Source of the DNA: a virus
Length of the DNA stretch: 24,517 nucleotides
Strand: one strand, 5' to 3'
Virus record (IMG/VR): IMGVR_UViG_3300047317_000278
Location: 1 to 24,517 of that record
Made by a program: the position numbers and the translations under genes. Position 1 is the stretch's first letter. Every line of letters begins with the position of its first letter. Of the stretch, positions 5,849-18,841 are shown piece by piece. The notes beneath the pieces are model-generated. The model was not told where the DNA came from. It saw nothing but the letters and a program-made list of their open reading frames with translations, and did not search any database.

Positions 5849-7969
5849 TTAATCCTTCCGGTACCGATACCCATCGAAGCCGCCCGCCGACAGGGGCAAA
5901 CCCTCGGCCCAGCTGGGCACCGTAGCCATCAGCGCCGAGAGTCCGTCGGCGGTGAAGTCGTCTGTGTCAGGCGCTTCCGTCAGCAGTTCATCGTGAATCG
6001 ACAGCAGGATCTCGTAGCCGGCGTTCTCGACGTGCGGCATGTTCTCGAACAGCACGTCGCGCGCAACGGCTTGGCACAGGTTTTCAAACAGCTTCCCGCC
6101 GTACGTCTTCACGCGCTGCCATTTCCGCGTGTACTGATTGACGCCCATGTAGCTGATCTGCCCGCTGTCGTCGACGCGCGGCGCGATGTAGCAAAGCTGC
6201 CGGCCGCTCGGCATCTGCACGCGCAGCCAGTTGCCGTCACGGCGCAGCACGATGCGTCGCGCGCGCACGGTCTTGCCGGGCGAGCAGATCGCGGAGATCG
6301 CCGCATCTTTCAGTTCCGGCCAGTAGCTCGACGTCTGCGGGTGCGCGTTGCGCCAGGCGCGCTTCAGGATGTCGCACGCGATATAGACGTCTTTCTCAAG
6401 CCCCAGCGTGCGCTTCTGTTTCGTCGCCCACTCCCACGCGTTGCGCGCCTCGCGCACGACGTCAGGGTCGACGAGATCGAGCGCCGCGAACACCGCCGTG
6501 CGGATATCGTTCAGTTCCATCTTGTACGTGAGCGTGAAGGTCACGAACGCGCCGACGCCGCCTTCGTACGCGAGCGCGAGTTCCTGCACCTTGCCGAGCT
6601 GGCGCCGGTCTTTCGTCACGTCGTCCACGCTCACGCCGAACGAGCGCGCGTATGCAAGCTTGTACAGGTCGGCACCCGTACCGGCATCGAAGTCCCGGAA
6701 CGCCTGCAGCTTCCAGTCTTCGCCCGACAACCACGCCGCGACGCGGCCTTCGATGTTGGACAGGTCGGACACGACCAGCTTCTTGCCTTCCGGCACGATG
6801 ATCGAGCCACGGATAACGTTCGACGTCAGGCCCATGACGTTGCCGAATATCTGGTCGGCGCAGTCAGCCTTGAGCGCTTCTATGCCCATCGCGGTGTAAC
6901 GCTCGGCATCGCCGTCGGCCAGCTTCTCGACGCCGAGTTCCAGCTTCATCAGATCGACGTTCGGGCGCGGCATGTTGCCCGGCTGCAGCCCGCGGTGCGC
7001 GACGCGGCCGGTGCGGTTTGCGCCGCAGAACTGCTGCGTACCGCGCAGGCGCCCGTCGCTCGACACGCTTTTCAGCAGCGTCTTGTACTTCGACGAGCTG
7101 GTCATCGTGGCTTCGAGCCGGATAGCCAGCAACTCGCGCAGCGGGTCAGGCAGATCCGGGTCGTTAATGCGACGCTCGAGCGTCGACTTCTTCATGTCCG
7201 GCAGTTCGATTTCGTATTCGGCCAGCAGGTACTTCAGCAACTTGTCGCGCTGCGTGGCCTTCTGGACTTCGCCGTCGGTCAACTCAGCGGTGCGTGCGGC
7301 GTGTCCTTTCTGTGCGCGGTCGATCGCCTTCACGGCAGCGCGCGCCAGATCCGTGTCGACGCACATGCCGCGCTGGTTGATCCGCACATCAAGGTTAGAA
7401 AAGCCAAGTTCCTTTTTGTTGTTCGGATAATTCCACTTGGGCATCTTGTTGTGGATCGCGCGCATCGCCGAGATGTCGCGGCCCGCGTACACGAGGAAGC
7501 GCGCCCACTCGGCGGGGTGCGTCAGGCGCGTGTTGCGCCCGCCATCACGTCTCGGTTTGCAGAACAACTGGATCAGCGCGTTACCGTCCTTGCTTTTTGC
7601 CTGGTCGAGCGGCACGCCGAGAATCGCGCACAGCAGATCGAGCGCGCCCGGCAGGCTGTGCTCGTATGCCTGCACCATCGTGTCGCGCCACTTCTCGGCC
7701 GGCATGCGCTCGCGCAGTTCCGGCATGCCGTGGCCGAGCACGGTGTAGTCGAACATATTTCCGTTCTGCCACCAGTACTCGTCGGCCTCGTCGATCGCGA
7801 AGTCGAGTTCGGCAGGCATCGCCAGATCTGCGGTGCGATCCCACGTGCCGACAGGACCGTCGTCGACGGCCCACGTCACGATCATGATCTCGACCGGCTC
7901 GGCGTAGATGTGCGTGCCCGACTTCAAAGGCGTCGGCGAGTAGGTTTCAGTGTCGAGCCACAGTTTCAC
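5849..7969 (-). CDS. Family A DNA polymerase with 3'-5' exonuclease domain
   Basis: The product is 706 aa. The N-terminal proofreading domain shows exo I LDTET (Asp6, Glu8), exo II NGNMFDY and exo III YAGRDISAM. The polymerase domain shows motif A VVSDLSNIEGR, the O-helix KDRRQLGKVQELALAYEGG and motif C SIHDE (659-661). There is no 5'-3' nuclease domain, as usual for phage replicases of this type. It should be the phage's replicative polymerase. The start overlaps the clamp-like gene's stop codon by 4 nt, and the pair probably work together. A candidate hairpin follows its stop. Confidence 0.95.
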   Translation of the reverse strand: MKLWLDTETYSPTPLKSGTHIYAEPVEIMIVTWAVDDGPVGTWDRTADLAMPAELDFAIDEADEYWWQNGNMFDYTVLGHGMPELRERMPAEKWRDTMVQAYEHSLPGALDLLCAILGVPLDQAKSKDGNALIQLFCKPRRDGGRNTRLTHPAEWARFLVYAGRDISAMRAIHNKMPKWNYPNNKKELGFSNLDVRINQRGMCVDTDLARAAVKAIDRAQKGHAARTAELTDGEVQKATQRDKLLKYLLAEYEIELPDMKKSTLERRINDPDLPDPLRELLAIRLEATMTSSSKYKTLLKSVSSDGRLRGTQQFCGANRTGRVAHRGLQPGNMPRPNVDLMKLELGVEKLADGDAERYTAMGIEALKADCADQIFGNVMGLTSNVIRGSIIVPEGKKLVVSDLSNIEGRVAAWLSGEDWKLQAFRDFDAGTGADLYKLAYARSFGVSVDDVTKDRRQLGKVQELALAYEGGVGAFVTFTLTYKMELNDIRTAVFAALDLVDPDVVREARNAWEWATKQKRTLGLEKDVYIACDILKRAWRNAHPQTSSYWPELKDAAISAICSPGKTVRARRIVLRRDGNWLRVQMPSGRQLCYIAPRVDDSGQISYMGVNQYTRKWQRVKTYGGKLFENLCQAVARDVLFENMPHVENAGYEILLSIHDELLTEAPDTDDFTADGLSALMATVPSWAEGLPLSAGGFDGYRYRKD

Positions 7970-8622
7970 AGCAACTCTTCTGCAGTGTCGGGCTGCGTTG
8001 CCGGTGCTTTCTCGGCAGTGAGCGCGCGGCGGAACGATGACGTGTCGGGCACCGGCAGCGGCTTGCGCGACTTCGGGTCGTGGGTCAACGGCATCACGAC
8101 ACCAATGAAACGGTCTGCGCCTATCAAACCGAAAAGCGCCGCGTCAGTGGGGCCGTTGTGCCAGATGCACGCGGTACGCTTCTTGTCGACGATTTTCTGC
8201 GCCTTGTCGATGCGGCCGAGCAGATCGCCGGCAAACTGCGCCGCTTCGCCGCTCACCTTCTGCGGGACGGTACGCGTGTAATCGGGAAAGCGTCCGTCGG
8301 CGGGATTGAACGTGAAAGCGCGATCGTCATACTGCTGGATACGAAACTGCCCGGCGTCGATCGTGACACGAACCGGAAACTTTGCATCCGGTTTGAGCGC
8401 GTCGATCACATCGGTGGGGATAATCAACTCATCGAACGTGACGCCTTCGTTCTGCTGCTCGCGGTCGAACACGCCGACGATCGTGCCGTCGGTCCCGACA
8501 ATGCGCGTCTCTTTCGCCGTCGCCTGCACGAGCACGCCGTTGAGGTAATAGCGAATGTCCTGCTTCGCAGCGAACACGCGCACGGCTTTAAGTTCGGTTG
8601 CGTCGATATAGATCGTCTTCAT
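7966..8622 (-). CDS. Sliding-clamp (DnaN)-like protein
   Basis: The product is 218 aa from the ATG at 8622 (TGATG overlap with the HNH gene); a GTG at 8625 is also possible. The segment IRYYLNGVLVQATAKETRIVGTDGTIVGVF resembles the characteristic strand-turn of bacterial beta clamp domains (YYLNGV...L.ATDGHRL). A similar beta-rich second half contains FTFNPADGRFPDYTRTVP, where clamps have GRFPDY. Cellular clamps are about 370 aa with three domains, so this one would have about two and might form a larger ring. Placement directly before the polymerase supports a processivity role. The tail (RALTAEKAPATQPDTAEELL) is disordered. Confidence 0.72.
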   Translation of the reverse strand: MKTIYIDATELKAVRVFAAKQDIRYYLNGVLVQATAKETRIVGTDGTIVGVFDREQQNEGVTFDELIIPTDVIDALKPDAKFPVRVTIDAGQFRIQQYDDRAFTFNPADGRFPDYTRTVPQKVSGEAAQFAGDLLGRIDKAQKIVDKKRTACIWHNGPTDAALFGLIGADRFIGVVMPLTHDPKSRKPLPVPDTSSFRRALTAEKAPATQPDTAEELL

Positions 8623-9005
8623 CACAGCAGCTCCAATTGTTCAAACGGCATATCAGGCCAGGTTCCCCAGCCCTTCTTCGAATTCTCTTTCCAGTGAATC
8701 ACCCGCATGTTCCAGTGCACGTGCAGGCCGCAGACCAGCTTCCCCGCCAGTGGCACGATGTGATCCACCACGTACAGTTCGCCCGTCGCTTTCGTCATCA
8801 GTTCGGCTTGCCGGTACATCGAGCGGATCGCTTTCATATCCGCCCATGCCGGCGTCGCCGTCCATTCCCGCCGCCTGCGCCGCTTGCCACCCAAAGTGCC
8901 ACCATGAATCACAGGGGCGCGTCGCTTCTGAACAATAAAGAGCGGGCCAACGTGGTAGCCCGTCGTGAGGGCAAGCGTAAGTTGCCCGTTCAGTTCCATC
9001 GGCAT
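8622..9005 (-). CDS. HNH endonuclease-like protein
   Basis: The product is about 127 aa if it starts at ATG 9005; ATG 8999 is an alternative, and the longer frame to 9143 seems a shadow. The conserved part is WADMKAIRSMYRQAELMTKATGELYVVDHIVPL...VCGLHVHWNMRVI...KENSKKG, the usual HNH core (DHI, then N, then the N/K-rich end) of a common phage HNH group. It lies in a different frame from the zinc-ribbon gene and overlaps it by about 350 nt. No strong ribosome binding site is seen at either start. Confidence 0.65.
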   Translation of the reverse strand: MPMELNGQLTLALTTGYHVGPLFIVQKRRAPVIHGGTLGGKRRRRREWTATPAWADMKAIRSMYRQAELMTKATGELYVVDHIVPLAGKLVCGLHVHWNMRVIHWKENSKKGWGTWPDMPFEQLELL

Positions 9006-15534: not shown

Positions 15535-16032
15535 ATGAAAGCGATCGAGACAAAGTACAAGGGCTGCCGGTTCCGGTCGCGCCTTGAGGCGCGGTGGGCG
15601 GTGTTCTTCGATGTGCTTGGCGTGGCATGGGAATACGAGCCCGAAGGCTTTGAACTGGGCGGCGGTGTGCGTTATCTGCCTGACTTCGCGTTGCGGTGTG
15701 GTGGCAAAGACGTCACTGACGCCATCGAGATTAAACCTTTCGCGCCCGCGTCGGCAGATCTTGCGAAGTTAGCGAGCGTGTGCCGCGGGCTGCGTTGCAC
15801 GGGCGCCGTTTTGTACGGCGTGCCCGGCGAGCATGGGATCGTGCGCACCTTCCCGAAGATTGCGCCGCGGTTCGACGGTCTTGACCCAACCAACAGGCAC
15901 ATCGATTTTCAGGTGTGGGCATGGCGTGGCTATCCAGACGATCGCCGCGCCAATTTCGCTTTGACGTGTGAAGCTATCGCCGCGGCTCGTGGCGCGCGTT
16001 TCGAATTCGGTGAATCAGGGGCGCGTGCATGA
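15535..16032 (+). CDS. PD-(D/E)XK nuclease-like phage protein
   Basis: The product is 165 aa. The start chosen is ATG 15535, which has AAGGGGAT upstream, over the ATG at 15490. MKAIETKYKGCRFRSRLEARWAVFFDVLGVAWEYEPEGFEL...YLPDFAL...DAIEIKPF has the E...D...ExK order of a PD-(D/E)XK nuclease: Glu19 (RLEARWA), Asp46 (LPDF) and EIK. Similar small proteins are widespread in phages and mostly untested. It overlaps the primase-helicase start as ATGA, so it probably acts on replication or recombination intermediates. Confidence 0.65.
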   Translation: MKAIETKYKGCRFRSRLEARWAVFFDVLGVAWEYEPEGFELGGGVRYLPDFALRCGGKDVTDAIEIKPFAPASADLAKLASVCRGLRCTGAVLYGVPGEHGIVRTFPKIAPRFDGLDPTNRHIDFQVWAWRGYPDDRRANFALTCEAIAAARGARFEFGESGARA

Positions 16033-18383
16033 TCAATCAAGAATTGGTCGACGCGCTCGCGCCGATTGTTAGTCGTGTGCGCACGTCAACGTGCTGCGTC
16101 AAGAAACCAGGCATGGCGCCGGCGCGAATCAACCAGGCGCTGACAGCCGCCAAGTTGGCAAAGCATTGCGACGGCGGGCCCGCGTACGGCGTTTATCCGA
16201 TGTTGCCCGGTGAGTCGACGACGCGTATCGCGCTGCTCGATCTGGATTCGCACAAGGGTGAAACGCCGTGGCCCGACATGCAGGCCGCGGCGCTCAACAT
16301 CATGGCGGATCTCGAATCGTACGGAATGCGCCCGATCCCGTTTCGCTCGTCGGGCGGCGCCGGGCTGCATATCTATCTGCTGTGGGACACGCCGCAAGAC
16401 GCGTACAGCGTGCGGCATCGCCTGCGCCACGTGCTCGCGCATTCCGGATTCAAGGATGGAACTGCAGGCGTCGCAGCCGGCGAGATTGAAGCGTTTCCGA
16501 AGCAGGATTCGGTCCCCGCCGACGGCTACGGCAACATGTTCGTGCTGCCGCTCGCCGGCAAGTCGGTGCCGCTTGAATCTTTCGAGCTTGACGACATGCC
16601 GAAAGACTTCGTCATCGGTATGGACTGGCCTGTATCTGACGACGTGCCGCTGGCCCCGCGCCCAGTGCGTGAAGTCGAGTCGGTCGGTACGCCGACGGGC
16701 ATCACTCCGACGATACGCTCGGCGCTCGACGCGATTCTCAACAGTGGTGACGACGAACTCGATTACGACGGCTGGCGTACTGTGCTGTTCGCGATCAACT
16801 TCGAGACGGGCGGATCCGACGAAGGCCTCGCACTGGCCCATGAGTTCTCAGCGCGATCGAGTAAGTATGACGCGGACAAAGTAGAGCGCGACTGGAACTA
16901 CGCCGGCCGCAGCGACGCGGCGCCAATCACTGGCCGTTCGATCCTGCATCTGGCGCGCGAGCTGCACAAGTGGCAAGAGCCCGTCGAGGATGACTTCGAA
17001 GTCGTTGAGAACGAGACCGCCAAGGGGGAAACCTGGCTCACAGGTTGGCATTTCCTGACCGCGCGCGATCGACTCGCGAAAGTCGGTGAGCCCGGCACGT
17101 TGAGCATCACCGGATTCAACACACGTTTCGCACGCATGATGGCGGCCGGCAAAAATGGTGGCAAGCCGGCTGCGTTCGAGACAGTGAAGAACGGGCCGGG
17201 CTTTCCGATCGCGGCAGATCTGGTCTACGCCGCTGGGCAGGAACCCGTGTTCGAGTTCAACGGCATGCGATATCTCAATGCCTACCGCGAATCCAGCACG
17301 CCGGCCCCGGCAGCCGACTACACCGACGGGGGACGTGCGGCCGTGGATCTGGTGCGTGCGCATATCCGGATGCTGACTGGTGACGACGAAACCGCGCACA
17401 TGGTCGAGACGTGGATCGCGCTGAATGTGCGCGCGCCGGGCCAGTTGATGGGTGTGTCGCTGCTCGTGAAAGGCGTGCAGGGTGACGGTAAAACCATTCT
17501 GTTCCGCCAGCTGATGGCCACGGTTATGGGCGCCGAGAACGTGGGCGACGTCGCGAACGCGGAAGTGCGCAGCCAGTTTTCCGGTTGGGCGGTTGGGCGC
17601 GCGCTGCGTGTGGTGGAAGAACTCAAGGCGCCCGGCCACAACCGGCACGATGTGCTGAACAGCGTGAAGCCTTACATCACCAATCCGACGATCTCGGTGC
17701 ACCGCAAAGGCCAGGATGGCTTCGACGCGCTGAACACCACGAACTACGTCTGTCTGACCAACTACGAAGACGCACTGCCGATCGACGACACCGATCGCCG
17801 CTGGTGGGTCATCTTCTCGCCGTTCACCAGCATCACCGATGTGGTCGCGCTAGTGGGTCCGGTCGAGCCGTACTTCGATCGGCTCACGACAGCGATCAGG
17901 GCGCACGGCACCGAACTGCGGAAGTACTTCATGGAATGCCCGCTGCATGCCCGCATCCGGCACAACATGCGCGCACCGGAAACTGCTGGCCGTGCTCGCA
18001 TGATCCGCGCCGAGAACGACATGTCAGGCGGCGATTTCCTGGACGGTTATCTGCGCGATGGCGCCTACGGTATCAGTGGCGAAGTCGTCGCATCGGCCGA
18101 ACTTACCCGGCAACTGCATTCCGACATGGGCGACGACCATCCGCGCACGAAACAGATCGCGGCGTTGCTGGCGTCGCGCGGCTTCAAACAATGCGACGGA
18201 ACGCTCAAATGGGACGGTCGGAACCATCGCGTGTATGTGCACGACGCGCGACTTGTGACCGCGACCGGTAACGAACTAGGTCGGCAGCGTCTTCGCAAGA
18301 TGTTGGACGAAACTGCAAAAAACAACGAACACGCAGAATTTGACGATTTGCGTATGTCTGGCACCGCCGACGACCTGATGTGA
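16029..18383 (+). CDS. Primase-helicase (AEP primase, PriCT-2, SF3-type helicase)
   Basis: The product is 784 aa. Residues about 1-200 form an archaeo-eukaryotic-type primase domain with IALLDLDSHKG (near 65-75) and FRSSGGAGLHIYLLW (near 105-120). Residues about 230-310 resemble PriCT-2 (YDGWRTVLFAINFETGG...ERDWNYAG). The helicase half has Walker A GVQGDGKT (near 482), VVEELK as the Walker B region, and TTNYVCLTNYEDALPIDDTDRRWWVI with an arginine finger, as in the D5/DUF5906 phage helicases. It should unwind and prime the phage origin. The likely origin-like repeat block starts at its stop codon. Confidence 0.93.
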   Translation: MINQELVDALAPIVSRVRTSTCCVKKPGMAPARINQALTAAKLAKHCDGGPAYGVYPMLPGESTTRIALLDLDSHKGETPWPDMQAAALNIMADLESYGMRPIPFRSSGGAGLHIYLLWDTPQDAYSVRHRLRHVLAHSGFKDGTAGVAAGEIEAFPKQDSVPADGYGNMFVLPLAGKSVPLESFELDDMPKDFVIGMDWPVSDDVPLAPRPVREVESVGTPTGITPTIRSALDAILNSGDDELDYDGWRTVLFAINFETGGSDEGLALAHEFSARSSKYDADKVERDWNYAGRSDAAPITGRSILHLARELHKWQEPVEDDFEVVENETAKGETWLTGWHFLTARDRLAKVGEPGTLSITGFNTRFARMMAAGKNGGKPAAFETVKNGPGFPIAADLVYAAGQEPVFEFNGMRYLNAYRESSTPAPAADYTDGGRAAVDLVRAHIRMLTGDDETAHMVETWIALNVRAPGQLMGVSLLVKGVQGDGKTILFRQLMATVMGAENVGDVANAEVRSQFSGWAVGRALRVVEELKAPGHNRHDVLNSVKPYITNPTISVHRKGQDGFDALNTTNYVCLTNYEDALPIDDTDRRWWVIFSPFTSITDVVALVGPVEPYFDRLTTAIRAHGTELRKYFMECPLHARIRHNMRAPETAGRARMIRAENDMSGGDFLDGYLRDGAYGISGEVVASAELTRQLHSDMGDDHPRTKQIAALLASRGFKQCDGTLKWDGRNHRVYVHDARLVTATGNELGRQRLRKMLDETAKNNEHAEFDDLRMSGTADDLM

Positions 18384-18573
18384 TTTGTGACCTTGGGTCT
18401 TTTGTGACCTGATTTGTGACCTCGCCGAAAGCCTTATCCAGTATGTGTTTCGGTGTTTTAAGGTCACAAGTCACAAATCATTTTAATTAATACGTATACG
18501 CACACACGCATGCGCACACACGTGCATGTGCATGCATGGATTGAAATGATTTGTGACTTGTGACTTGTGACCT
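18382..18573. repeat. Iterated TTGTGAC boxes with inverted arms around a Z-DNA-prone tract
   Basis: TTGTGAC occurs direct at 18385, 18402 and 18414, inverted (GTCACAA) at 18463 and 18470, and direct again at 18551, 18558 and 18565. The blocks 18463-18483 and 18544-18564 are perfect 21-nt inverted repeats. The 60 nt between them contain 18491-18538, 48 bases of unbroken pyrimidine-purine alternation (many CA/TG and CG steps), preceded by AT-rich TTTTAATTAA. Iterated boxes, an AT-rich stretch and supercoil-sensitive DNA right after the primase-helicase gene suggest a replication origin; a packaging or control site next to terminase is the alternative. Confidence 0.75.
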
Positions 18574-18613
18574 GATTCACAACATGAAAAAAGTTACGCG
18601 TTCGGGGTGGACC

Positions 18614-18841
18614 ATGAAAAAGATAGTTGGTGTGAATGAAAAGGGTTTGCGCGTGGGTCAGGACCACCAGCGCGCAAAGCTGAGCGATGCCGCCGTCGAG
18701 ATGATCCGCCGGCTGCACGAGGATGGATTGTCGTATCGCGTGATCGCTCAGAAGTTCGAGATTGCGAAATCCACAGTGCAGGACATCTGCACGTATCGGC
18801 GCCGGGCACAAACCGCTGTGAAGTGGCGCACGACAGGTTGA
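18614..18841 (+). CDS. Small HTH DNA-binding protein
   Basis: The product is 75 aa from ATG 18614, which follows GGGGTGG; ATGs at 18560 and 18584 are in frame but lack such a site. RVGQDHQRAKLSDAAVEMIRRLHEDGLSYRVIAQKFEIAKSTVQDICTYRRR is a resolvase-type HTH also found as a tail of phage homing nucleases. With nothing else attached it is a stand-alone binder. It lies between the repeat block and terminase, so binding to the TTGTGAC boxes and control of origin or late genes is a testable guess. Confidence 0.65.
   Translation: MKKIVGVNEKGLRVGQDHQRAKLSDAAVEMIRRLHEDGLSYRVIAQKFEIAKSTVQDICTYRRRAQTAVKWRTTG

What the first reader, a model, noticed from the sequence alone, without database searches (positions are those of the whole stretch)
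18382..18573. Eight TTGTGAC boxes and 21-nt inverted arms enclosing a 48-bp alternating pyrimidine-purine tract
Directly seen: three direct boxes after the primase-helicase stop, then two perfect 21-nt inverted arms (18463-18483, 18544-18564) with further boxes, and between them 48 strictly alternating bases (18491-18538) next to an AT-rich patch. Such a tract can flip to Z-DNA under negative supercoiling. Inference: a replication origin recognised by the primase-helicase or the 75-aa HTH protein next door, where Z-DNA formation might sense supercoiling; or a packaging or late-control site. I know of no described phage origin with this design. TGTGA is also a CRP/Vfr half-site, so host CRP-like binding is a rival idea.
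Basis: partly seen in the sequence, partly recalled or inferred. Interest (0 to 1): 0.82.

Follow-up and report, generated by a model that had tools for sequence, protein, structure and literature searches.

The report
Phage replication origin with alternating core
A short stretch in a bacterial virus looks like the place where its DNA copying starts: repeated boxes, apparently read by the tail end of the virus's own primase-helicase, sit in two mirrored blocks around an unusual 49-letter strictly alternating DNA stretch that could flip into left-handed form.

Summary
In detail: eight TTGTGAC boxes, perfect 21-nt inverted arms, and an alternating tract of 49 nt (18490-18538). The same layout (tandem 7-10 bp boxes in head-to-head blocks around a core) follows the primase-helicase gene in about 25 relatives, including Bordetella phage BPP-1, whichever gene comes next. 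Box sequence is hypervariable and covaries with the primase-helicase's C-terminal winged helix after correcting for the rest of the helicase (partial Mantel r=0.39, p=1e-4). It does not covary with the 75-aa HTH protein (r=0.10, p=0.30); two phages with identical HTH proteins have different boxes. Between the window and its nearest kin (88% identical primase), all eight boxes changed, only at positions 5-6 (14/16 sites versus 0/40). The tract changed only by transitions and 2-nt indels, staying alternating (54 nt). Best reading: an iteron replication origin loaded by its own primase-helicase, like SaPI or P4 origins; a BPP-1 stem-loop origin was proposed in 2014. New here: the boxes-plus-wing reading, and a core of Z-prone alternating DNA, seen in only two lineages. 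Origin activity and Z-DNA formation are inferred, not shown.

The parts
16029..18383 (+). primase-helicase (AEP + PriCT_2 + DUF5906), proposed initiator
   Evidence: Pfam/PHROG matches; helicase part matches NrS-1 primase structures 6k9c/6k9e, E 6e-9 (that these entries are NrS-1 is from my own knowledge)
18126..18245 (+). codons for the C-terminal winged-helix-like segment (about residues 700-739), proposed box reader
   Evidence: sequence analogy to the type-B C-terminal winged helix; type-A AlphaFold model itself is low confidence
18385..18420 (+). three proximal TTGTGAC boxes (18385, 18402, 18414)
   Evidence: positions kept in L016 as TTGTAGC/TTGTAGC/TTGTGTC
18423..18455 (+). small hairpin (CCGAAAGCCTTATCCAGTATGTGTTTCGG region) between proximal boxes and left arm
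   Evidence: predicted fold; AAAGCCTTA-NCAGTA motif also in many type-B gaps
18463..18483 (.). left inverted arm with two GTCACAA boxes
18484..18543 (.). origin core: AT patch at its left end, then the alternating tract
   Evidence: core length similar to type-B cores
18490..18538 (.). 49-nt strictly alternating purine-pyrimidine tract
   Evidence: best predicted B-Z site of the window
18544..18571 (.). right inverted arm (18544-18564) overlapping the right block of three tandem TTGTGAC boxes (18551-18571)
18566..18581 (.). perfect CRP consensus TGTGACCTGATTCACA formed by the last box and an inverted TTCACAA
   Evidence: left half lost in L016 (TGTATCCCGATTCACA)
18614..18841 (+). 75-aa HTH protein; neighbour, not the box reader

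Best explanation
The gap 18384-18613 holds the replication origin of a Rauchvirus (BPP-1)-like podovirus. The primase-helicase made from the gene just upstream binds the TTGTGAC boxes through a C-terminal winged helix (inferred from covariation). The head-to-head box blocks load two ring helicases facing each other across a ~60-bp core (inferred from SaPI/P4/T-antigen practice). The core is opened and the AEP domain primes both strands (inferred). In this lineage the usual AT-rich core is largely replaced by an alternating Pu/Py tract whose YR steps are easily unstacked and which can absorb negative supercoiling as Z-DNA (energetics computed, function inferred). The tract also carries several GTG/CAC triplets, the start motif of related prim-pols. 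Box sequence and the winged helix diverge together, giving each phage its own origin specificity (covariation shown, purpose inferred).
For: Same layout directly after the primase-helicase gene in about 25 distinct relatives of three helicase types, with three different next genes: HTH, small terminase, another 89-aa protein. Box distance follows winged-helix distance, partial Mantel given helicase r=0.39 p=1e-4; helicase given winged helix r=-0.01; in ten close relatives the wing gives r=0.64 p=0.002 versus helicase r=0.29 p=0.24; the HTH protein gives r=0.10 p=0.30. VRxR/VRxQ wing goes with TAG/AAG boxes, RxF wing with TAC boxes, without exception in the nine close relatives that have either wing. 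All eight boxes differ from L016 only at positions 5-6, 14/16 versus 0/40, P=2e-11. Tract differences are 6 transitions, 0 transversions and 2-nt indels, versus 19:24 in the rest of the gap and 215:204 in the gene (P about 0.02-0.03). The gap holds the easiest-melting stretch of the window (18434-18498) and its best Z site (sigma -0.0325). Published parallels: SaPI Rep and Cch2 bind iterons just 3' of their own gene with the C-terminal domain (PMC7581432); pRN1 needs an element just 3' of its prim-pol-helicase gene and BIP-1/BPP-1 has a stem-loop there (PMC4234260).
Against: No origin activity or binding has been measured. GC skew gives no origin signal in seven genomes. Covariation was measured in type-B phages and carried over to the window's type A, which has only two lineages. 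The type-A C-terminal fold could not be modelled (pLDDT 38). Mantel p-values are not fully corrected for shared ancestry, and box registers were partly chosen by hand. Alternation in the tract could come from dinucleotide slippage.
Confidence: 0.8

Rival explanations
1. Stem-loop origin of the pRN1 type: the 102-nt inverted repeat is recognised as an extruded hairpin or cruciform, and box letters matter only through pairing.
For: Strong DNA fold in window and L016, z -5.8 and -5.7, no shuffle as good; pRN1 needs stem integrity and Berkner et al. proposed this for BIP-1/BPP-1.
Against: Box spacing differs between the left and right blocks in several relatives (9 versus 10 or 7 bp), so stems are not perfect while boxes are kept; boxes covary with the winged helix; arm complementarity weakens in L016.
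Confidence: 0.12
2. Operator of the 75-aa HTH protein, controlling the late operon that starts with its own gene.
For: The HTH gene starts 42 bp after the last box; its recognition helix differs between window and L016 as the boxes do.
Against: Identical HTH proteins with different boxes (L015 versus L016) and three HTH variants with one box TACACCACC; Mantel r=0.10 p=0.30; boxes persist where the HTH gene is absent (L054, L080); no sigma-70-like site found.
Confidence: 0.04
3. Packaging (pac/cos) or late-control site beside the terminase genes.
For: The small terminase gene starts about 310 bp downstream.
Against: Box type follows the upstream primase-helicase, not the terminase; the next gene varies; a similar array follows the primase in Psp6 about 1.3 kb from the terminase.
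Confidence: 0.03
4. Host CRP/Vfr-like regulator sites.
For: One perfect TGTGA-N6-TCACA at 18566-18581.
Against: The other boxes are direct repeats without the CRP half-site spacing; in L016 none of the eight boxes keeps TGTGA and the CRP site becomes TGTAT-N6-TCACA; relatives use unrelated boxes.
Confidence: 0.02
5. The alternating tract itself is neutral: a slippage-grown spacer in a real iteron origin, with only its length mattering. (This rival concerns the tract only and is compatible with the origin reading.)
For: Indels are 2 nt and the tract is CA/TG-rich; several relatives have cores with no long alternation (L014, L080, L029).
Against: Not a simple repeat; six substitutions all transitions; short alternating runs are over-represented in the cores of several relatives (L054, L058, BPP-1, Psp6; combined P 5e-8, loci not independent).
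Confidence: 0.35

Closest known systems
SaPI / SCCmec Rep (Cch2) iteron origins
   Same: self-loading helicase-initiator, short iterons just 3' of its gene, C-terminal domain binds them, two helicase rings (PMC7581432)
   Different: here the helicase is a DUF5906 type fused to a prim-pol; boxes change fast between close phages; the core is alternating DNA
Phage P4 alpha protein / ori
   Same: primase-helicase whose winged helix binds repeats at the origin (as described in PMC4234260)
   Different: P4 primase is Toprim type; no alternating core known to me
pRN1 ORF904 origin, and the BIP-1/BPP-1 stem-loop noted in PMC4234260
   Same: AEP-SF3-winged helix protein with a ~100-nt inverted repeat just 3' of the gene; BPP-1 is a relative of the window
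   Different: that paper saw a stem-loop and dismissed iterons in BIP-1; here BPP-1 arms are read as tandem TTTGCCTCG boxes
NrS-1 phage prim-pol (NrSPol)
   Same: helicase part matches 6k9c/6k9e (E 6e-9); primes at GTG/GTGA/TTTGGTTA (PMC8718748)
   Different: NrSPol motifs are single-strand start sites; the boxes here are taken as duplex binding sites
SV40 T-antigen / papillomavirus E1 origins (general knowledge)
   Same: inverted pairs of short sites around a melting core set up a helicase double ring
   Different: N-terminal origin-binding domains, unrelated proteins, eukaryotic hosts

Membership tests
Iteron origin of a self-loading primase-helicase (SaPI/P4 kind) | origin directly 3' of the helicase gene | tested here: met
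Iteron origin of a self-loading primase-helicase (SaPI/P4 kind) | tandem short repeats in two blocks | tested here: met
Iteron origin of a self-loading primase-helicase (SaPI/P4 kind) | C-terminal winged helix in the initiator | tested here: inconclusive
   type-B model pLDDT 78 with winged-helix topology; type-A model too poor
Iteron origin of a self-loading primase-helicase (SaPI/P4 kind) | initiator specificity matches the iterons | tested here: met
   covariation in 19 type-B loci; indirect evidence, carried over to type A by analogy
Iteron origin of a self-loading primase-helicase (SaPI/P4 kind) | AT-rich melting core between the blocks (usual, not strictly defining) | tested here: inconclusive
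   window core 18484-18543 is about 47% GC (genome 61%), so not AT-rich as a whole; an AT patch lies at its left end and 18434-18498 is the easiest-melting stretch of the window
Iteron origin of a self-loading primase-helicase (SaPI/P4 kind) | autonomous replication and initiator binding | not testable with these tools
   bench work needed
pRN1-type stem-loop origin | ~100-nt stem-loop 3' of the rep gene | tested here: met
pRN1-type stem-loop origin | pairing kept while sequence changes | tested here: inconclusive
   boxes invert in both blocks, but spacing differs between blocks in several relatives
CRP/Vfr binding site | TGTGA-N6-TCACA, conserved | tested here: not met
   one perfect site at 18566-18581, left half lost in L016
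Z-DNA element | sequence able to flip at natural supercoiling | tested here: met
   predicted sigma -0.0325 in both lineages, using the dinucleotide energies of PMC3024258 and a long-domain approximation; a computed value only
Z-DNA element | Z form present in cells | not testable with these tools
   needs probing

The most novel reading that the evidence does not exclude
A phage replication origin whose unwinding core is a selected, strictly alternating purine-pyrimidine tract (Z-forming or all-YR-step DNA) that senses supercoiling or presents GTG primer sites on both strands, inside a family where box and winged helix re-specify each other within close kin.
Probability: 0.3. Interest if true: 0.8.

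Novelty: new variant of a known kind. Interest (0 to 1): 0.62.

Why it matters
It places a testable origin in the BPP-1 (Rauchvirus) group. It offers a natural series of matched box/winged-helix pairs for working out how a primase-helicase recognises its origin and how phages may escape each other's replication machinery. It also offers a clean natural test of whether Z-prone alternating DNA can serve as an origin core in place of AT-rich DNA.

Tried and rejected
HTH protein as box reader: looked promising from window versus L016, rejected. CRP: rejected as a general explanation. GC skew as origin evidence: uninformative in seven genomes. Rfam: only sub-threshold eukaryotic miRNA matches to the CA-rich tract, taken as chance. 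Sigma-70 promoter/terminator scan of 18300-18700: none. AlphaFold of the type-A C-terminus with two sequences: pLDDT 38, not used. Foldseek of the type-B C-terminus: only weak hits, many of them winged-helix proteins; a Z-alpha domain is among the weak hits, which I do not take as evidence of Z-DNA binding. Further type-A relatives: three more viral scans (protein A1, protein A5, DNA pattern) found only the same three contigs, plus one remote 24% hit. DNA search of the gap in named phages: no match.

Full report
WHAT IS THERE. The window is an IMG/VR virus record of 24,517 bases. Its genes are those of a temperate podovirus: CI-like S24 repressor, YdaS/Cro-like protein, prim-pol helicase, HTH protein, terminases, head-tail connector, and on the other strand a family-A DNA polymerase. 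The alternating run is 49 nt, 18490-18538; the next longest in the window is 16, and 300 Markov-simulated sequences reached at most 30. Eight TTGTGAC boxes lie in 192 bp, with only one other copy in the window (18253).

NEAREST KIN. Three contigs (L003, L004, L005) encode an 88%-identical primase-helicase. Their gap has exactly the same length, 230 nt. The boxes sit at the same places, but every one of the eight has changed, and only at positions 5 and 6 of the 7-mer: TTGTGAC became TTGTAGC, TTGTATC or TTGTGTC (14 of 16 possible sites changed there, 0 of 40 elsewhere, P=2e-11). The tract is still strictly alternating, now 54 nt with different letters. Inside the tract the aligned differences are six transitions, no transversions and 2-nt indels; in the rest of the gap they are 19 transitions to 24 transversions, and in the gene 215 to 204 (P about 0.02-0.03). 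So both the boxes and the alternation look constrained, in different ways.

THE WIDER FAMILY. Searching with the HTH protein and with two other primase-helicase types gave about 25 distinct relatives in IMG/VR plus BPP-1, Caulobacter phage SR18 and others. All intact ones I read carry, directly after the helicase gene, tandem boxes of 7-10 bp in head-to-head blocks around a core. Exceptions are the Manatee Spring, Limnohabitans and zth2-2 records and L032, which have other genes upstream of the HTH gene. Three helicase types occur: A (DUF5906; window and L003-5), B (VapE-like; 9-bp boxes), C (D5_N/P4-like, including BPP-1; 8-10 bp boxes). The next gene may be the HTH gene, a small terminase (L054, named from its sequence by eye) or an unrelated 89-aa protein (L080, L085). 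The array therefore belongs to the primase-helicase, not to the HTH or the terminase.

WHO READS THE BOXES. Across 19 type-B loci, box distance correlates with distance in the C-terminal winged helix (r=0.62), and still does after removing the helicase distance (r=0.39, p=1e-4). The helicase explains nothing once the winged helix is removed (r=-0.01). In ten close relatives the wing gives r=0.64, p=0.002, the helicase r=0.29, p=0.24. The HTH protein gives r=0.10, p=0.30 in nine. Concretely, a VRxR/VRxQ wing goes with TAG or AAG boxes and an RxF wing with TAC boxes. L015 and L016 have letter-identical HTH proteins but unrelated boxes. Caveats: shared ancestry is only partly controlled; the boxes of L021, L025 and L057 were read by hand and registers were set by eye. 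The extension to type A rests on sequence analogy (RTKQIAALLASRGFKQ...HRVYV against RIGKVLQALGYVR...RVWV) because the type-A model is poor. The type-B C-terminus models as a winged helix with the covarying residues on the first wing strand.

THE CORE. Using the dinucleotide energies printed in PMC3024258 and a long-domain approximation, the tract is the best B-Z site of the window (sigma -0.0325; next -0.0386 for a 12-bp CG-rich run), with the same value in L016. The easiest-melting stretch of the whole window is 18434-18498, i.e. part of the hairpin, the left arm and the AT patch up to the tract (melting energies recalled from the SIDD literature). Other cores are mostly AT-richer (27-48% GC) and several hold shorter alternating runs: 18 nt in L054, 17 in Psp6, 16 in L058, 14 in BPP-1; some have none. 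The window's tract looks like an extreme of this tendency. An untested idea: the tract carries several GTG/CAC triplets, and GTG or GTGA is the primer start motif of NrSPol and ORF904 (PMC8718748); the window helicase matches structures 6k9c/6k9e, which I know as NrS-1.

KNOWN OR NEW. Iteron origins just 3' of a self-loading helicase gene, bound by the C-terminal domain, are known for SaPIs and SCCmec Cch2 (PMC7581432), and P4 alpha binds repeats with a winged helix (as stated in PMC4234260). Berkner et al. 2014 proposed a stem-loop origin 3' of the BIP-1/BPP-1 replication gene and dismissed iterons. My reading revises that: the BPP-1 arms are tandem TTTGCCTCG boxes. I found no paper on an alternating purine-pyrimidine core in a phage or plasmid origin, within an open-access library only. 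Verdict: a new variant of a known kind. Shown: sequence, conservation, covariation. Inferred: origin function, helicase loading, Z-DNA. Failed to help: GC skew.

Noticed in passing
window 18590-18606; the 30 bases before the HTH start in L016 and L033: A motif like AAAWTTRCRCGTTC lies just upstream of the HTH gene in all types including BPP-1, and a similar one follows the primase stop in type C (L080, L084). It may be a late promoter or another binding site.
   Followed up: partly
window 18423-18455: Hairpin with AAAGCCTTAT-CAGTA loop motif between proximal boxes and left block, shared by type A and many type-B gaps; could be a terminator remnant or a priming hairpin.
   Followed up: partly
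L083 (BcepC6B NC_005887, last 52 bases): The linear BcepC6B record ends inside its putative origin, next to the left box block; L046 also breaks at the primase end. Whether this is an assembly break at repeats or a real end is not known.
   Followed up: no
PQ492659 (L036): Limnohabitans phage DC33 is filed under Inoviridae although its genome is 39 kb and carries this HTH gene in a gene order that looks like a tailed phage; probably misfiled.
   Followed up: no
OR844948, OR848870 (hits H21, H29): Short records named Enterococcus and Listeria phage carry a primase matching at the same level as those of Salmonella phages; may be mislabelled or contaminated.
   Followed up: no
window 7966-8625 (-): A 219-aa protein with a DNA polymerase III beta-clamp central domain (E 6.5e-8), i.e. 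a likely phage-encoded sliding clamp, next to the family-A polymerase gene.
   Followed up: no
L105 3780-4080 (Pseudomonas phage Psp6), L104 4474-4746 (Curvibacter phage PCA1): More distant phages with a type-A-like C-terminus also have box arrays (GTTACC; GGAACC) after the primase and short alternating runs (17 and 12 nt) in the gap.
   Followed up: partly
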